Shown here in pieces: positions 1,799 through 62,640 of a stretch of 64,000 nt of DNA. Each line of letters begins with the position of its first letter. Position 1 is the stretch's first letter. A model generated the notes under the pieces. That model made no database searches and had not been told where the DNA came from. It was given only the letters and a program-made list of their open reading frames with translations. Both the position numbers and the translations under genes were made by a program. The DNA lies in NCBI RefSeq assembly GCF_002736105.1, contig NZ_CP024123.1, positions 3,278,001-3,342,000 of the forward strand, in the 5' to 3' direction. The stretch comes from Solibacillus sp. R5-41. Lineage in GTDB: Bacteria; Bacillota; Bacilli; Bacillales_A; Planococcaceae.

Positions 1799-1807
1799 TG
1801 CTATAAT
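1799..1807 (+). promoter_or_regulatory. Extended -10 box upstream of the PBP gene
   Basis: TGCTATAAT is an extended -10 element with no good -35 box. Its last bases merge with the start of repeat copy A, so the repeat would lie in the 5' untranslated region of the downstream gene. Confidence 0.45.
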
Positions 1808-1914
1808 CAATTACGCCTAGGCGTAATTGTGTCTAGATTTTCAAAATCTGTGACATTCGCCGGGAGCTTTATCTTCGTTCAGTAAATATTATCTTTGTGA
1901 ATGAAGATAAACAA
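1806..1914 (+). repeat. Structured intergenic repeat, copy A (short form)
   Basis: Contains the perfect 20-base palindrome AATTACGCCTAGGCGTAATT (1809-1828), a collapsed AGATTTT/AAAATCT hairpin (1835-1849), the linker GTGACATTCGCCGG, and a closing stem TTATCTTCGTTCA (1869-1881) with TGAATGAAGATAA (1898-1910). The inner arms seen in longer copies are missing. It ends just before the AGGAGG of the PBP gene. Confidence 0.85.
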
Positions 1915-7972: not shown

Positions 7973-8003
7973 ATAAAATTCCTCCTCAGGATAATGTGTT
8001 TTT

Positions 8004-8064
8004 TAATCAATTACACCTCGACTAACTTTAGTCCAGATTTTTTTCGAACCTGCTGAAGCAAATT
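8004..8064 (+). repeat. Structured intergenic repeat, copy B (internally deleted)
   Basis: Keeps the family start TAATCAATTACACC, a GACTAA/TTAGTC mini-hairpin in place of the usual palindrome, GTCCAGATTTTTTTCGA, then jumps to the family end (TGCTGAAGCAAATTA). It fills most of the argC-argJ gap and ends about 2 bases from the argC stop. Confidence 0.75.
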
Positions 8065-8066
8065 AA

Positions 8067-14675: not shown

Positions 14676-14783
14676 TCAAACTAAAACAAAATTTAGTGTT
14701 TCTGAAACGCCAAAACTCGTAAAGACAACGAACAACATGAAAAACGGTACTCCAAATCACTAGCCAAACGTAACGTAAGAATA

Positions 14784-14996
14784 AATCAATTACACCTCGG
14801 CGTAATTGCGTCCAGATTTTTATCGAGCATACTCGTAAAAAATCTGTGATATCCTCCGGGGGCTTAGGGCCAACAAGATGTTGGTTACTCAGGCGTTTCC
14901 GCAGGACGTGGCGATCTTAGCCTGAGTTCCCCTATTCAGCCGGGGTTTGAACTCCTACTGAATTCAGTACATATTTAGCATTCATCCAACACTTAA
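14784..14996 (+). repeat. Structured intergenic repeat, copy C (with extra insert)
   Basis: Starts AAATCAATTACACCTCGG, with a 20-base near-palindrome (14788-14807). A CAGATTTTT/AAAATCTG hairpin (14813-14846) holds a TCGAG/CTCG inner stem. After the CCTCCGGGGGC linker comes an insert with CCAACA/TGTTGG and ACTCAGGC/GCCTGAGT stems (about 14868-14926), then ATTCAGCCGGGGTTTGAACTCC. The right-hand closing strand has decayed. It occupies most of the 366-base gap before ccpA. Confidence 0.85.
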
Positions 14997-16043: not shown

Positions 16044-16163
16044 AGAATCTCCCCCTTTTTTATTGATAAATGCTATTTTCCATCCAATTAGCCCAGACTT
16101 ATTTATAGCACCGAATATGGTTATACTAATCATATAATACTTTCATTTCCATTTTCAATCAAT

Positions 16164-16256
16164 TAATCAATTACACTAAGACTAACTTTTGTCCAGATTT
16201 TTTATTCATCCCGTACTCGTATAGACGTTGAGGACATTCTACTAAAGTAAGTTAAA
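16164..16256 (+). repeat. Structured intergenic repeat, copy D (degenerate)
   Basis: Begins TAATCAATTACACTAAGACTAAC and GTCCAGATTTTTT as in copy B, then decays; the end TCTACTAAAGTAAGTTA resembles the family 3' end. Lies between the ccpA start and the MarR gene stop. Confidence 0.6.
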
Positions 16257-16271
16257 CATAGTCGATTCAAT

Positions 16272-21748: not shown

Positions 21749-21763
21749 ATTCAGCTCTCCCCT

Positions 21764-22008
21764 TATCGATTACGCCTCGGCGTAATTGGTCCAGATTTTG
21801 AATTGTATTTGCACAGGATGTTAGCCTAAGTTCGTCGCATCCATACGACAACGGCTAACTGACCTGCATCCCTCCCTTCAAAATCTGTGACATCCGCCGG
21901 GGGCTTTATCTTTGTTCATTGTATGTTTGAACACCCAATAAACAAAACGAACACTCCATTCATCTCTACCTATTGAGGTAGGAATTTTCTGCTGAACGAA
22001 GATAACAG
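21764..22008 (+). repeat. Structured intergenic repeat, copy E (full length, inner arm orientation 1)
   Basis: Palindrome ATTACGCCTCGGCGTAAT (21769-21786). The 11-bp stem CAGATTTTGAA (21792-21802) / TTCAAAATCTG (21877-21887) encloses a 56-base hairpin module (21815-21870) with GTTAGCC/GGCTAAC and GTCG/CGAC stems. Then come the linker GTGACATCCGCCGGGGGC and a closing stem TTATCTTTGTTCA (21906-21918) / TGAACGAAGATAA (21993-22005) enclosing CTACCTATTGAGGTAG. Ends about 3 bases from the ytxG stop. Confidence 0.92.
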
Positions 22009-27340: not shown

Positions 27341-27540
27341 TTTATCAATTACGCCGAGGCGTAATTGCGTCCAGATTTTTTTCGAGCTCACTCGAAAAAC
27401 TCCCCTTAAAAAATCTGTGACATCCGCCGGAACATTAACTTGATTTAGCCGGGGTTTAAACCCCCACCTAATAAAAATGCATATTTATCATTCATCCCCA
27501 CTTATAGAGGTAGGGGACTTCTGCTGAAACAAGTTATAAT
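27341..27540 (+). repeat. Structured intergenic repeat, copy F (best three-way-junction copy)
   Basis: Palindromic AATTACGCC/GGCGTAATT (27347-27366). CAGATTTTTT/AAAAAATCTG (27372-27417) encloses TTCGAG-CTCA-CTCGAA. Linker GTGACATCCGCCGG. Closing stem TAACTTGATTTAGC (27436-27449) / GCTGAAACAAGTTA (27523-27536) encloses the perfect palindrome GGGGTTTAAACCCC (27451-27464) and a CCCC/GGGG hairpin (27496-27516). Lies in the gap between sftA and ytpR. Confidence 0.92.
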
Positions 27541-36834: not shown

Positions 36835-37096
36835 TAAATCAATTACGCCTCGGCGTAATTGCGTCCAGATTTTGAATTGTGCTTAGGCCCGCACGATGCA
36901 GGTCAGTTAGCCGTTGTCACATGGATGCGACGAACTTAGGATAACATCCTAATATTAATTTCCTTCAAAATTTGTGACATCCGCCTGAGGCAATATCTTC
37001 ATTCAGTGAGCGTTTGAACACCTTTTGATAAAAGTTTAAAACTGCATTCATCCTACCACCTATTGAAATGAGCATTTTCTACTGAATGAAGATTAG
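36835..37096 (+). repeat. Structured intergenic repeat, copy G (full length, inner arm orientation 2)
   Basis: AATTACGCCTCGGCGTAATT (36841-36860). CAGATTTTGAA (36866-36876) pairs with TTCAAAATTTG (36964-36974) and encloses a hairpin module (36895-36950) that is the reverse complement of the one in copy E with 3 mismatches in 56. Linker GTGACATCCGCCTG. Perfect 13-bp closing stem ATCTTCATTCAGT (36995-37007) / ACTGAATGAAGAT (37081-37093). Ends 4-7 bases from the dat stop. It fills the 367-base gap. Confidence 0.92.
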
Positions 37097-49620: not shown

Positions 49621-49638
49621 GAATAATTGCCTCCTTGA

Positions 49639-49832
49639 TTATCAATTACACCCCGGCGTTATTGCGTCCAGATTTTTTTCGAGCATGCTCGAAAAACTCC
49701 TTTTAAAATCTGTGACATCCGCCGGGGCTTTAACTTGATTCAGCCTGGTTTGAACCCCCACTGACTTTAATTTGGAATTCAGCCACCACTTATAAATGAA
49801 GATGACTTCTGCTGAAACAAGTTTAAGAAAAC
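49639..49832 (+). repeat. Structured intergenic repeat, copy I
   Basis: Near-palindrome AATTACACCCCGGCGTTATT (49644-49663). CAGATTTT/AAAATCTG (49669-49712) encloses the perfect 16-base palindrome TTCGAGCATGCTCGAA (49678-49693). Linker GTGACATCCGCCGGGGC. AACTTGATTCAGC (49732-49744) / GCTGAAACAAGTT (49811-49823) encloses GGTTTGAACC (49747-49756). Confidence 0.92.
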
Positions 49833-62387: not shown

Positions 62388-62640
62388 CAAAAAAATCCCG
62401 CCCCATTCTTAAAAAATAAGAAGGGACGAGAGATATTTTATACTCCCGCGGTACCACCCACATTAGTGACACTGCACTCAGCTTGATTTCTTAACGCGAA
62501 TACACGGCTTTAGCTACTATTAGTTCACCAAAGCTAACTCAAAGGCGAGTTCGACTTACTACCTACTAGCTTTCACCAACCGCTAGCTCTCTAAAAGGAA
62601 GAACCGTCTACTATTCCTTATCACAGTCTTTTTTAATATT
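62388..62640 (-). promoter_or_regulatory. T-box leader of leuS (Leu specifier)
   Basis: Minus-strand GGGTGGTACCGCG (62447-62459), Stem I elements near GCTAGCGGTTGGTG, and a terminator (62388-62431) with a TCTCGTCCC/GGGGCGGGA stem before a seven-T run. The likely specifier is CUC (62547-62549, complement of gag), a leucine codon. Confidence 0.92.

What the first reader, a model, noticed from the sequence alone, without database searches (positions are those of the whole stretch)
27341..27540. Undescribed family of structured intergenic elements with covarying stems
At least ten copies or fragments lie in this window (about 1806, 8004, 14784, 16164, 21764, 27341, 29830, 36835, 42831, 49639). 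The shared order is: ATCAATTAC(G/A)CC palindrome, CAGATTTT...AAAATCTG hairpin, linker GTGACATCCGCCGG, then a closing stem that encloses one or two hairpins. The closing stem is AACTTGATTCAGC/GCTGAAACAAGTT in copies F and I, ATCTTCATTCAGT/ACTGAATGAAGAT in G, TTATCTTTGTTCA/TGAACGAAGATAA in E and TTATCTTCGTTCA/TGAATGAAGATAA in A. Sequence changes while pairing is kept, including G-T wobbles, which points to a selected fold. I do not recognise a named family; it is reminiscent in style of bcr elements of the B. cereus group.
Basis: seen in the sequence. Interest (0 to 1): 0.82.

Follow-up and report, generated by a model that had tools for sequence, protein, structure and literature searches.

The report
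High-copy mobile hairpin repeat element
The repeated hairpin sequence is a small mobile DNA element with well over a hundred copies in this bacterium; it has moved since two related species split, is too short to hold a transposase gene, and often carries a catalogued "RNA family" inside it as an exchangeable hairpin part.

Summary
The repeat is real and far larger than the window: 183 places match its conserved linker in this genome, against 1 for the reversed pattern. Its stems covary. It is not only an RNA family but a mobile element. Of 30 sites compared with a congener about 87% identical, 23 copies are present in one genome and absent from the other, in both directions, without visible target duplication; 4 sites are shared and 3 unclear. 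There the consensus reads TTTAAC|TTGNTTCAG, and the long form resembles the left end of ISEfa4-like IS200/IS605 elements, including the preceding TTAAC. Best reading: a non-autonomous IS200/IS605-like element made of nested hairpin modules. One module is Rfam RF01690 Bacillaceae-1: 99 matches over cut-off here, 23 of the 30 best inside this element (my reading). Against: no Y1 transposase found in this genome, its right end matches no IS read, and occupied and empty junctions differ in a triplet. The carrier repeat was not found in Rfam, plasmids, phages, nor in the paper listings seen.

The parts
27344..27532 (-). reference copy (long form without RF01690 module); strand given is the sense strand: 5' end at 27532, 3' end at 27344
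   Evidence: absent from the congener G061 at the orthologous site
27533..27537 (-). 5' junction pentanucleotide of the reference copy (sense ATAAC; family consensus TTAAC)
27496..27516 (-). hairpin module H5, alike (as family consensus) to the left end of ISEfa4-like IS200/IS605 elements
   Evidence: 55 bp at 83.6%, 44 bp at 88.6%, consensus against two IS left ends
27436..27449 (-). closing stem, one arm (pairs with 27523-27536)
27523..27536 (-). closing stem, other arm; it overlaps the 5' junction pentanucleotide
27418..27430 (-). conserved linker (TGACATCCGCCGG on the + strand)
27372..27417 (-). hairpin H2 (outer arms CAGATTTT / AAAATCTG)
27346..27367 (-). terminal palindrome H1 (CAATTACGCC / GGCGTAATTG), 3' end of the element in sense
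1804..1911 (-). truncated copy; the congener holds a shorter remnant at the same site (shared)
8003..8065 (-). short remnant with both ends; congener site empty
14782..14995 (-). copy with an RF01690 module; 5' end of the element not recognised
14870..14936 (-). Rfam RF01690 Bacillaceae-1 match, 69.7 bits, inside the copy
16163..16257 (-). decayed copy (weak)
21763..22006 (-). copy with an RF01690-like module placed antisense inside H2 (32 bits, below the cut-off of 35); congener site empty
36835..37095 (-). copy with an RF01690 module inside H2; congener site empty
36888..36955 (-). Rfam RF01690 match, 54.5 bits
42833..42934 (-). partial copy; congener site empty
49638..49827 (-). long-form copy; congener site empty

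Best explanation
It is a small non-autonomous mobile element (about 135-200 nt, or about 260 nt with an RF01690 module) of the family that holds Solibacillus. It most likely moves as single-stranded DNA with a Y1 (HUH) transposase of IS200/IS605 type supplied in trans. In sense its consensus reads 5'-TTTAAC | TTGNTTCAG ... GTAATTGAT-3'. The 5' end carries an IS-like left-end hairpin in the long form, and the 3' end is a terminal palindrome. Insertion is into T-rich sites, nearly always between genes, without visible duplication, mostly with the sense strand as presumed lagging-strand template. The closing stem pairs the junction pentanucleotide with an internal arm (TTAAC with GTTAA; TTATC with GATAA in a minor subfamily), which would act like an IS608-type guide. 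The interior is a mosaic of hairpin modules, some inserted into others, RF01690 among them. Shown: copy number, covariation, presence/absence at orthologous sites, no visible duplication, left-end likeness, strand bias. Inferred: the transposase, the single-strand route, the guide role.
For: Empty sites: of 30 distinct sites, 13 G000 copies and 10 G061 copies are absent from the other genome, 4 sites shared, 3 unclear. No duplication seen in the junctions read by eye. 5' junction T T T A A C at 0.70-1.48 bits over 102 junctions, the flank beyond at most 0.20. Left end alike to IS200/IS605 left ends over 55 bp (83.6%, E 3e-9) and 44 bp (88.6%, E 8e-10). Five left ends of this IS type (L253, L254, an L255 remnant, L261, L262) all follow TTTAAC; the five other loci read (L256-L260), of other types or broken, do not show it. 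The L231 element is 86% alike to ISEfa4-type elements of plasmids. 91 of 128 copies have the sense strand as lagging template (p 2e-6); 26 of 40 between convergent or divergent genes (p 0.08). Literature, passages only: IS608 inserts 3' to TTAC kept in the left flank, chosen by pairing with a guide; IS200/IS605 uses the lagging template and end hairpins (PMC5934647, PMC6006769).
Against: No Y1_Tnp match in G000, nor in the element-rich G112, G118, G082, G130 and G014. The right end of the one IS read to its end (L231) is not like the element's 3' end; no IS with both ends was found, but many loci fetched were too short to show the right end. Empty sites mostly read TT then AAT, GAA or GAT where occupied ones read AAC (or ATC) on the left and GAT on the right; textbook IS200/IS605 would leave the target unchanged. 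The short form lacks the left-end hairpin, yet two short G061 copies (134 and 128 nt) are absent from G000. The strand bias is partly confounded with gene direction: only 9 copies lie between lagging-strand genes, split 5:4, and the origin was assumed, not located.
Confidence: 0.57

Rival explanations
1. A REP-like element moved by a domesticated RAYT (TnpA-REP) transposase, not by a normal IS transposase.
For: RAYT-like Y1 genes (about 190-250 aa..MRGNNRQ.. or alike; the label is mine, from recall) occur in many element-rich genomes. In 3 of 20 such loci fetched an element follows the gene directly: L239, L245, L246.
Against: L245 and L246 look like the same site, and at about 180 copies per genome one or two such neighbours are expected by chance (my estimate). 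G000, G112, G118, G082 and G130 are element-rich without any Y1 hit. The element is much longer and more complex than a REP hairpin.
Confidence: 0.15
2. Mobile by another route: an unknown integration chemistry in which the element brings its own triplets (AAC at the 5' end, GAT at the 3' end) and takes the place of the RAN triplet of a TTRAN target.
For: In most of about 18 clean events read by eye the empty site holds 3 nt between the homologous flanks; the occupied left triplet seems to follow the element's subfamily (AAC, or ATC in 4 of 7 TTC-type ends) more than the target.
Against: The flanks differ by about 13% and the junctions are AT-rich, so alignment is ambiguous by 1-2 nt. Changes after insertion cannot be excluded. 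No formal alignment test was made.
Confidence: 0.15
3. Mainly a functional RNA (3' or 5' UTR element) kept by selection for its fold and spread long ago.
For: Covarying stems. Sense strand equals gene direction in 64 of 88 co-directional ORF pairs. In 26 of 97 junctions an upstream ORF's stop codon sits exactly before the junction, as TAA (once TGA) then one base, then TTG.
Against: 23 of 30 sites compared differ between two congeners, many copies are decayed or truncated, and the orthologous genes exist without them.
Confidence: 0.08
4. Ordinary MITE of a DDE transposase.
For: Short, high copy, nearly always between ORFs (5 of 128 overlap one).
Against: No terminal inverted repeat seen between the two ends and no target duplication in the junctions read.
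Confidence: 0.05

Closest known systems
Rfam RF01690 Bacillaceae-1 RNA
   Same: A 67-nt two-hairpin module inside many copies matches it above the gathering score.
   Different: RF01690 covers only the module. The carrier (H1, H2, linker, closing stem) matched no Rfam family. Here the module is one part of a mobile repeat, occurs in both orientations, and also nested in itself.
IS200/IS605 insertion sequences (ISEfa4-like)
   Same: Left end with hairpin and preceding TTAAC; no visible target duplication; strand bias.
   Different: No room for tnpA or tnpB; a different right end; junction triplet differs between occupied and empty sites.
REP / BIME / REPIN elements with RAYT transposases
   Same: Palindromic, between genes, high copy, Y1 genes present in some carrier genomes.
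   Different: 135-260 nt with nested modules; a GTAG-type foot was not looked for; no Y1 hit in G000.
bcr1 of the Bacillus cereus group
   Same: Short structured repeat of bacilli with mobile-element characteristics (title of its paper, seen in a reference list).
   Different: That title calls it specific to the B. cereus group; its sequence was not compared here.

Membership tests
Rfam RF01690 Bacillaceae-1 | Covariance model score at or above 35 bits | tested here: met
   For the module only: 99 of 103 genome matches over the cut-off (150 of 532 candidates scored). The reference copy at 27341 does not match.
IS200/IS605-derived non-autonomous element | End with subterminal hairpin homologous to an IS200/IS605 end | tested here: met
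   Left end only, long form.
IS200/IS605-derived non-autonomous element | Right end homologous to the same IS | tested here: not met
   L231 right end read and unlike. Word-7 BLAST of the consensus to 30 short and 10 longer Y1 loci gave no right-end match at E<=1; many of these loci stop before the right end.
IS200/IS605-derived non-autonomous element | No target duplication, fixed short target 5' of the left end | tested here: inconclusive
   No duplication seen; T-rich TTRAN target; but the triplet differs between occupied and empty sites.
IS200/IS605-derived non-autonomous element | Sense strand in the lagging-strand template | tested here: inconclusive
   91 of 128, but only 26 of 40 (p 0.08) where gene direction cannot explain it, and 5 of 9 between lagging-strand genes. 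Origin taken as position 0, not tested.
IS200/IS605-derived non-autonomous element | Y1 transposase in the same genome | tested here: not met
   PF01797: 0 in G000; 98 of 151 genomes of the family have a match.
REP / RAYT system | RAYT gene flanked by the repeat | tested here: inconclusive
   Repeat on one side in 3 of 20 fetched RAYT-like loci, two of them one site.
MITE of DDE transposase | Terminal inverted repeats and target duplication | tested here: not met
   Neither seen in the junctions read by eye.
bcr1 | Sequence similarity to bcr1 | not tested
   No bcr1 sequence was fetched.

The most novel reading that the evidence does not exclude
A self-guiding mobile element: an internal arm pairs with the junction pentanucleotide, and the pairing changes together between subfamilies (TTAAC/GTTAA, TTATC/GATAA). 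The element replaces a target triplet with its own, and it serves as landing pad for a second mobile hairpin, RF01690, which nests in hairpins in either orientation. RF01690 would then be a mobile part and not a stand-alone RNA gene.
Probability: 0.2. Interest if true: 0.8.

Novelty: new variant of a known kind. Interest (0 to 1): 0.6.

Why it matters
It turns an apparent orphan RNA family into a mobile element with at least 23 presence/absence differences between two congeners in the stretches compared. It places most of the best RF01690 matches of this genome (23 of 30 read) inside that element. If the single-strand route holds, the base pairing between element and target known from IS608 would be visible in natural evolution, where subfamilies change stem arm and junction together. 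In 26 of 97 junctions the element starts right behind an ORF's stop codon, so it would be part of many mRNAs.

Tried and rejected
RNAalifold consensus on 47 full copies: only 6 pairs. It is not used as evidence for the fold; the pair counts on 113 conserved halves and the permutation test are. For one search arms were picked by likeness to a few consensus arms, not by pairing. The 73 closing stems are those that passed; copies without both arms dropped out.

Model R1 was meant to hold structure but was built sequence-only, because RNAalifold returned no pair for A3. R1 finds relatives by sequence. Genome searches score only the first candidates (29, 22 or 11 per genome), so copy numbers there are lower bounds.

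Y1 transposase in the own genome: none. Reference copy in plasmid and phage collections: none at 1e-5; the tool warns that records of this or a very near genome may be left out. Autonomous partner with both ends: not found among 30 short Y1 loci (L203-L232, one per genome, out of a longer list), 20 RAYT-like loci and 10 longer Y1 loci. RAYT as partner: 3 of 20, judged near chance; presence against copy number was not tested formally.

Literature: eight answered searches. In the 5 to 15 papers listed per search, often out of hundreds or thousands of matches, none was seen to describe this repeat. The library is open-access only. Papers seen as passages: PMC2864571, PMC6006769, PMC5934647, PMC2267715; the others only as search listings.

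It is now 30 distinct sites, 23 differing, 4 shared, 3 unclear. Strand bias lowered from met to inconclusive. The best explanation went from 0.58 to 0.57 and the MITE rival from 0.04 to 0.05 for that reason.

Full report
WHAT IS THERE. The genome, one contig of 4,283,411 bases, has 183 places for the linker pattern against 1 for the reversed control, and 176 against 0 for the left-end pattern. I took 100 and 100 of the listed ones, giving 134 distinct places. On the 606 kb fetched by then, 184 chains were found, 95 reaching both ends; some chains are antisense partial hits over the same copies. Length classes are about 197 nt (bare), about 257 nt (with an RF01690 module), about 135 nt (short, closing stem directly round one hairpin) and others, with remnants. 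The nearest named hits of a neighbouring protein are Solibacillus palustris (94% in the best segment, residues 565-1037) and a Caryophanon MAG (79%), so the genome is taken as Solibacillus or close to it; NCBI places Solibacillus in Caryophanaceae.

STRUCTURE. On 113 conserved halves, 91.3% of cells pair against 88.3% in shuffles; 20 of 26 pairs have changes on both sides against 8.7; no shuffle of 500 reaches any of the five measures. With partners slid by 1-3 columns, 27.5-47.4% pair, 8-14 pairs have changes on both sides, and the covariation score is 0.015-0.046 against 0.125. Copies are related, so this is not a probability. The closing stem pairs 12.47 of 14 within a copy against 11.42 between copies (73 copies, 0 of 2000 permutations). 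H1 (main type, 122 copies: 8.93 against 8.74, 0 of 2000) and the outer arms of H2 (131 copies: 7.67 against 7.61, 1 of 2000) are smaller but also above permutation. Full-copy RNAalifold gives only 6 pairs. So the stems covary, while many single copies are decayed. Selection on an RNA, recognition of DNA hairpins by an enzyme, and hairpin-templated repair would all give this.

STRAND. I call that strand sense. The element then begins with the closing stem and ends with the CAATTAC palindrome.

RF01690 AS A MODULE. RF01690 has 103 matches in this genome, 99 over the cut-off (150 of 532 candidates scored). Of the 30 best, read with flanks, 23 lie in this element, 5 in a second repeat family and 2 elsewhere (my reading). 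Of the 63 with flanks held, a biased set, 54 are in this element (47 sense, 7 antisense), 1 doubtful, 5 in the second family, 3 other; 40 were not fetched. Modules sit next to the linker or inside H2, and some nest inside another RF01690 module. In the family, 72 of 101 genomes have RF01690, many in tens of copies.

MOBILITY. G061, a congener about 87% identical in DNA over the window, was compared in both directions. 19 G000 copies (one antisense partial hit left out) and 13 G061 copies had both flanks found. Two shared sites appear on both lists, so there are 30 distinct sites. 13 G000 copies are absent from G061 and 10 G061 copies absent from G000; some of these are truncated copies. 4 sites are shared (G000 3214833, 3251387, 3279804, 3350597). 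3 are unclear (G000 3237544 and 3469194, G061 3303523). I saw no duplication of the target. Example, in sense: empty CGATTTAAC|TTTTAGGGGAGG, occupied CTGTTTAAC|TTG...GTAATTGAT|TTTTGTGAGGAGG (copy 3551909).

ENDS. Over 102 5' junctions the bases TTTAAC before TTG carry 0.70, 1.12, 1.33, 1.48, 1.29 and 1.42 bits; further out at most 0.20. TTAAC itself is the junction in 48 of 80 TTG-type ends; of 7 TTC-type ends 4 read ATC. Over 154 3' ends, picked by likeness to the consensus, GAT is 90-96% per base and the next base holds 0.45 bits. The consensus matches the left ends of two IS200/IS605 elements of other genera: 55 bp at 83.6% in L253/L231 including TTAAC, and 44 bp at 88.6% in L254/L208. Neither of those two genomes (G025, G058) is among the 90 with an R1 match. 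The L231 element is 86% alike to ISEfa4-type elements of Enterococcus plasmids. Its right end is unlike ours. The published scheme for IS608 is a TTAC kept in the left flank, cleavage sites paired to guides, and TCAA at the right end (PMC5934647, passages); for the family, lagging-strand template and end hairpins (PMC6006769, passages).

AGAINST. The empty sites mostly do not read AAC. By eye, in about 18 clean events, the triplet is mostly AAT, GAA or GAT, with AAC in three (G000 3029082 and 3551909, G061 3277407), while occupied sites read mostly AAC. The right junction is nearly always GAT. Either both triplets are element-borne or they changed after insertion. This is not textbook behaviour and is left open. 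G000 has no PF01797 match; 98 of 151 family genomes do. RAYT-like genes have the element next to them in 3 of 20 loci, two of these one site.

CONTEXT. ORFs of 90 aa or more were called mechanically. Of 128 copies with ORFs on both sides within 700 bp, 91 have the sense strand as lagging template (p 2e-6), 26 of 40 where the ORFs converge or diverge (p 0.08), and 5 of 9 between lagging-strand ORFs. The origin was assumed at position 0 and the halves divided at 2.12 Mb. 5 of 128 overlap an ORF. In 28 of 97 junctions an upstream same-sense ORF ends within -6..+4 of the junction, in 26 of them exactly one base before TTG (25 TAA, 1 TGA). Of the 134 listed places, 10 lie between 1.5 and 2.75 Mb.

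DISTRIBUTION. With R1: 90 of 151 family genomes, 13 of 19 genera; 120 of 200 in the order sample, whose listed members are all of the same family; 21 of 398 in the class, of which 17 are of the own family and 2 of the other 4 are marginal. Matches per genome run from 1 to the cap within a genus (g3, for instance), as expected of a mobile element.

VERDICT. Mobile since the two congeners split: shown. Non-autonomous: at 135-260 nt it can hold no transposase gene. IS200/IS605-like route: likely, not proven. As a kind it is known (small non-autonomous element with structured ends). The mosaic with RF01690 and the stem that pairs with the junction make it a new variant. Gene and family names without a call (RAYT, LeuS, ComM, MFS, TnpB) are my reading of the translations.

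Noticed in passing
L035, L037, L040, L049, L056 (around the RF01690 match): A second repeat family (GTTGATTGGAATG..GGCGACTCCTGCGGGAACAGC .. GTGCCCGCGGAAAGCGTCCG..GGAATGGAAATCAAC) also carries RF01690 inside; its ends look like imperfect inverted repeats.
   Followed up: partly
L041, L058, G000 near 3006390: A third setting of RF01690, beside CCGCCGCC..AGCGGCG-like sequence; not identified.
   Followed up: no
L033, L042 (and G000 642408, 1073542): RF01690 modules nested in another RF01690 module.
   Followed up: partly
L233, L234 (G018, G036): A RAYT-like Y1 gene lies between homologues of the window's LeuS-like and MFS-like genes, which in the window have only a T-box region between them.
   Followed up: partly
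L236, L238: RAYT-like Y1 genes next to a ComM/YifB-like gene.
   Followed up: no
G061, site orthologous to window 14676-14985: About 2 kb extra sequence with a TnpB-like gene; its left end also holds a CAGAAG..CCACTT..AAGTGG..GATGAATG hairpin.
   Followed up: partly
window 62419-62633 and 1525-1730: Two T-box leaders (Rfam RF00230) on the minus strand, upstream of a LeuS-like and a tyrosyl-tRNA-synthetase-like gene.
   Followed up: no
G000 1.5-2.75 Mb: Few element copies there: 10 of 134 listed places in 1.25 of 4.28 Mb.
   Followed up: no
G251 and G345 (another family of the class): 6 and 4 R1 matches outside the home family, two of them close together in G251 contig 6; possible transfer.
   Followed up: no
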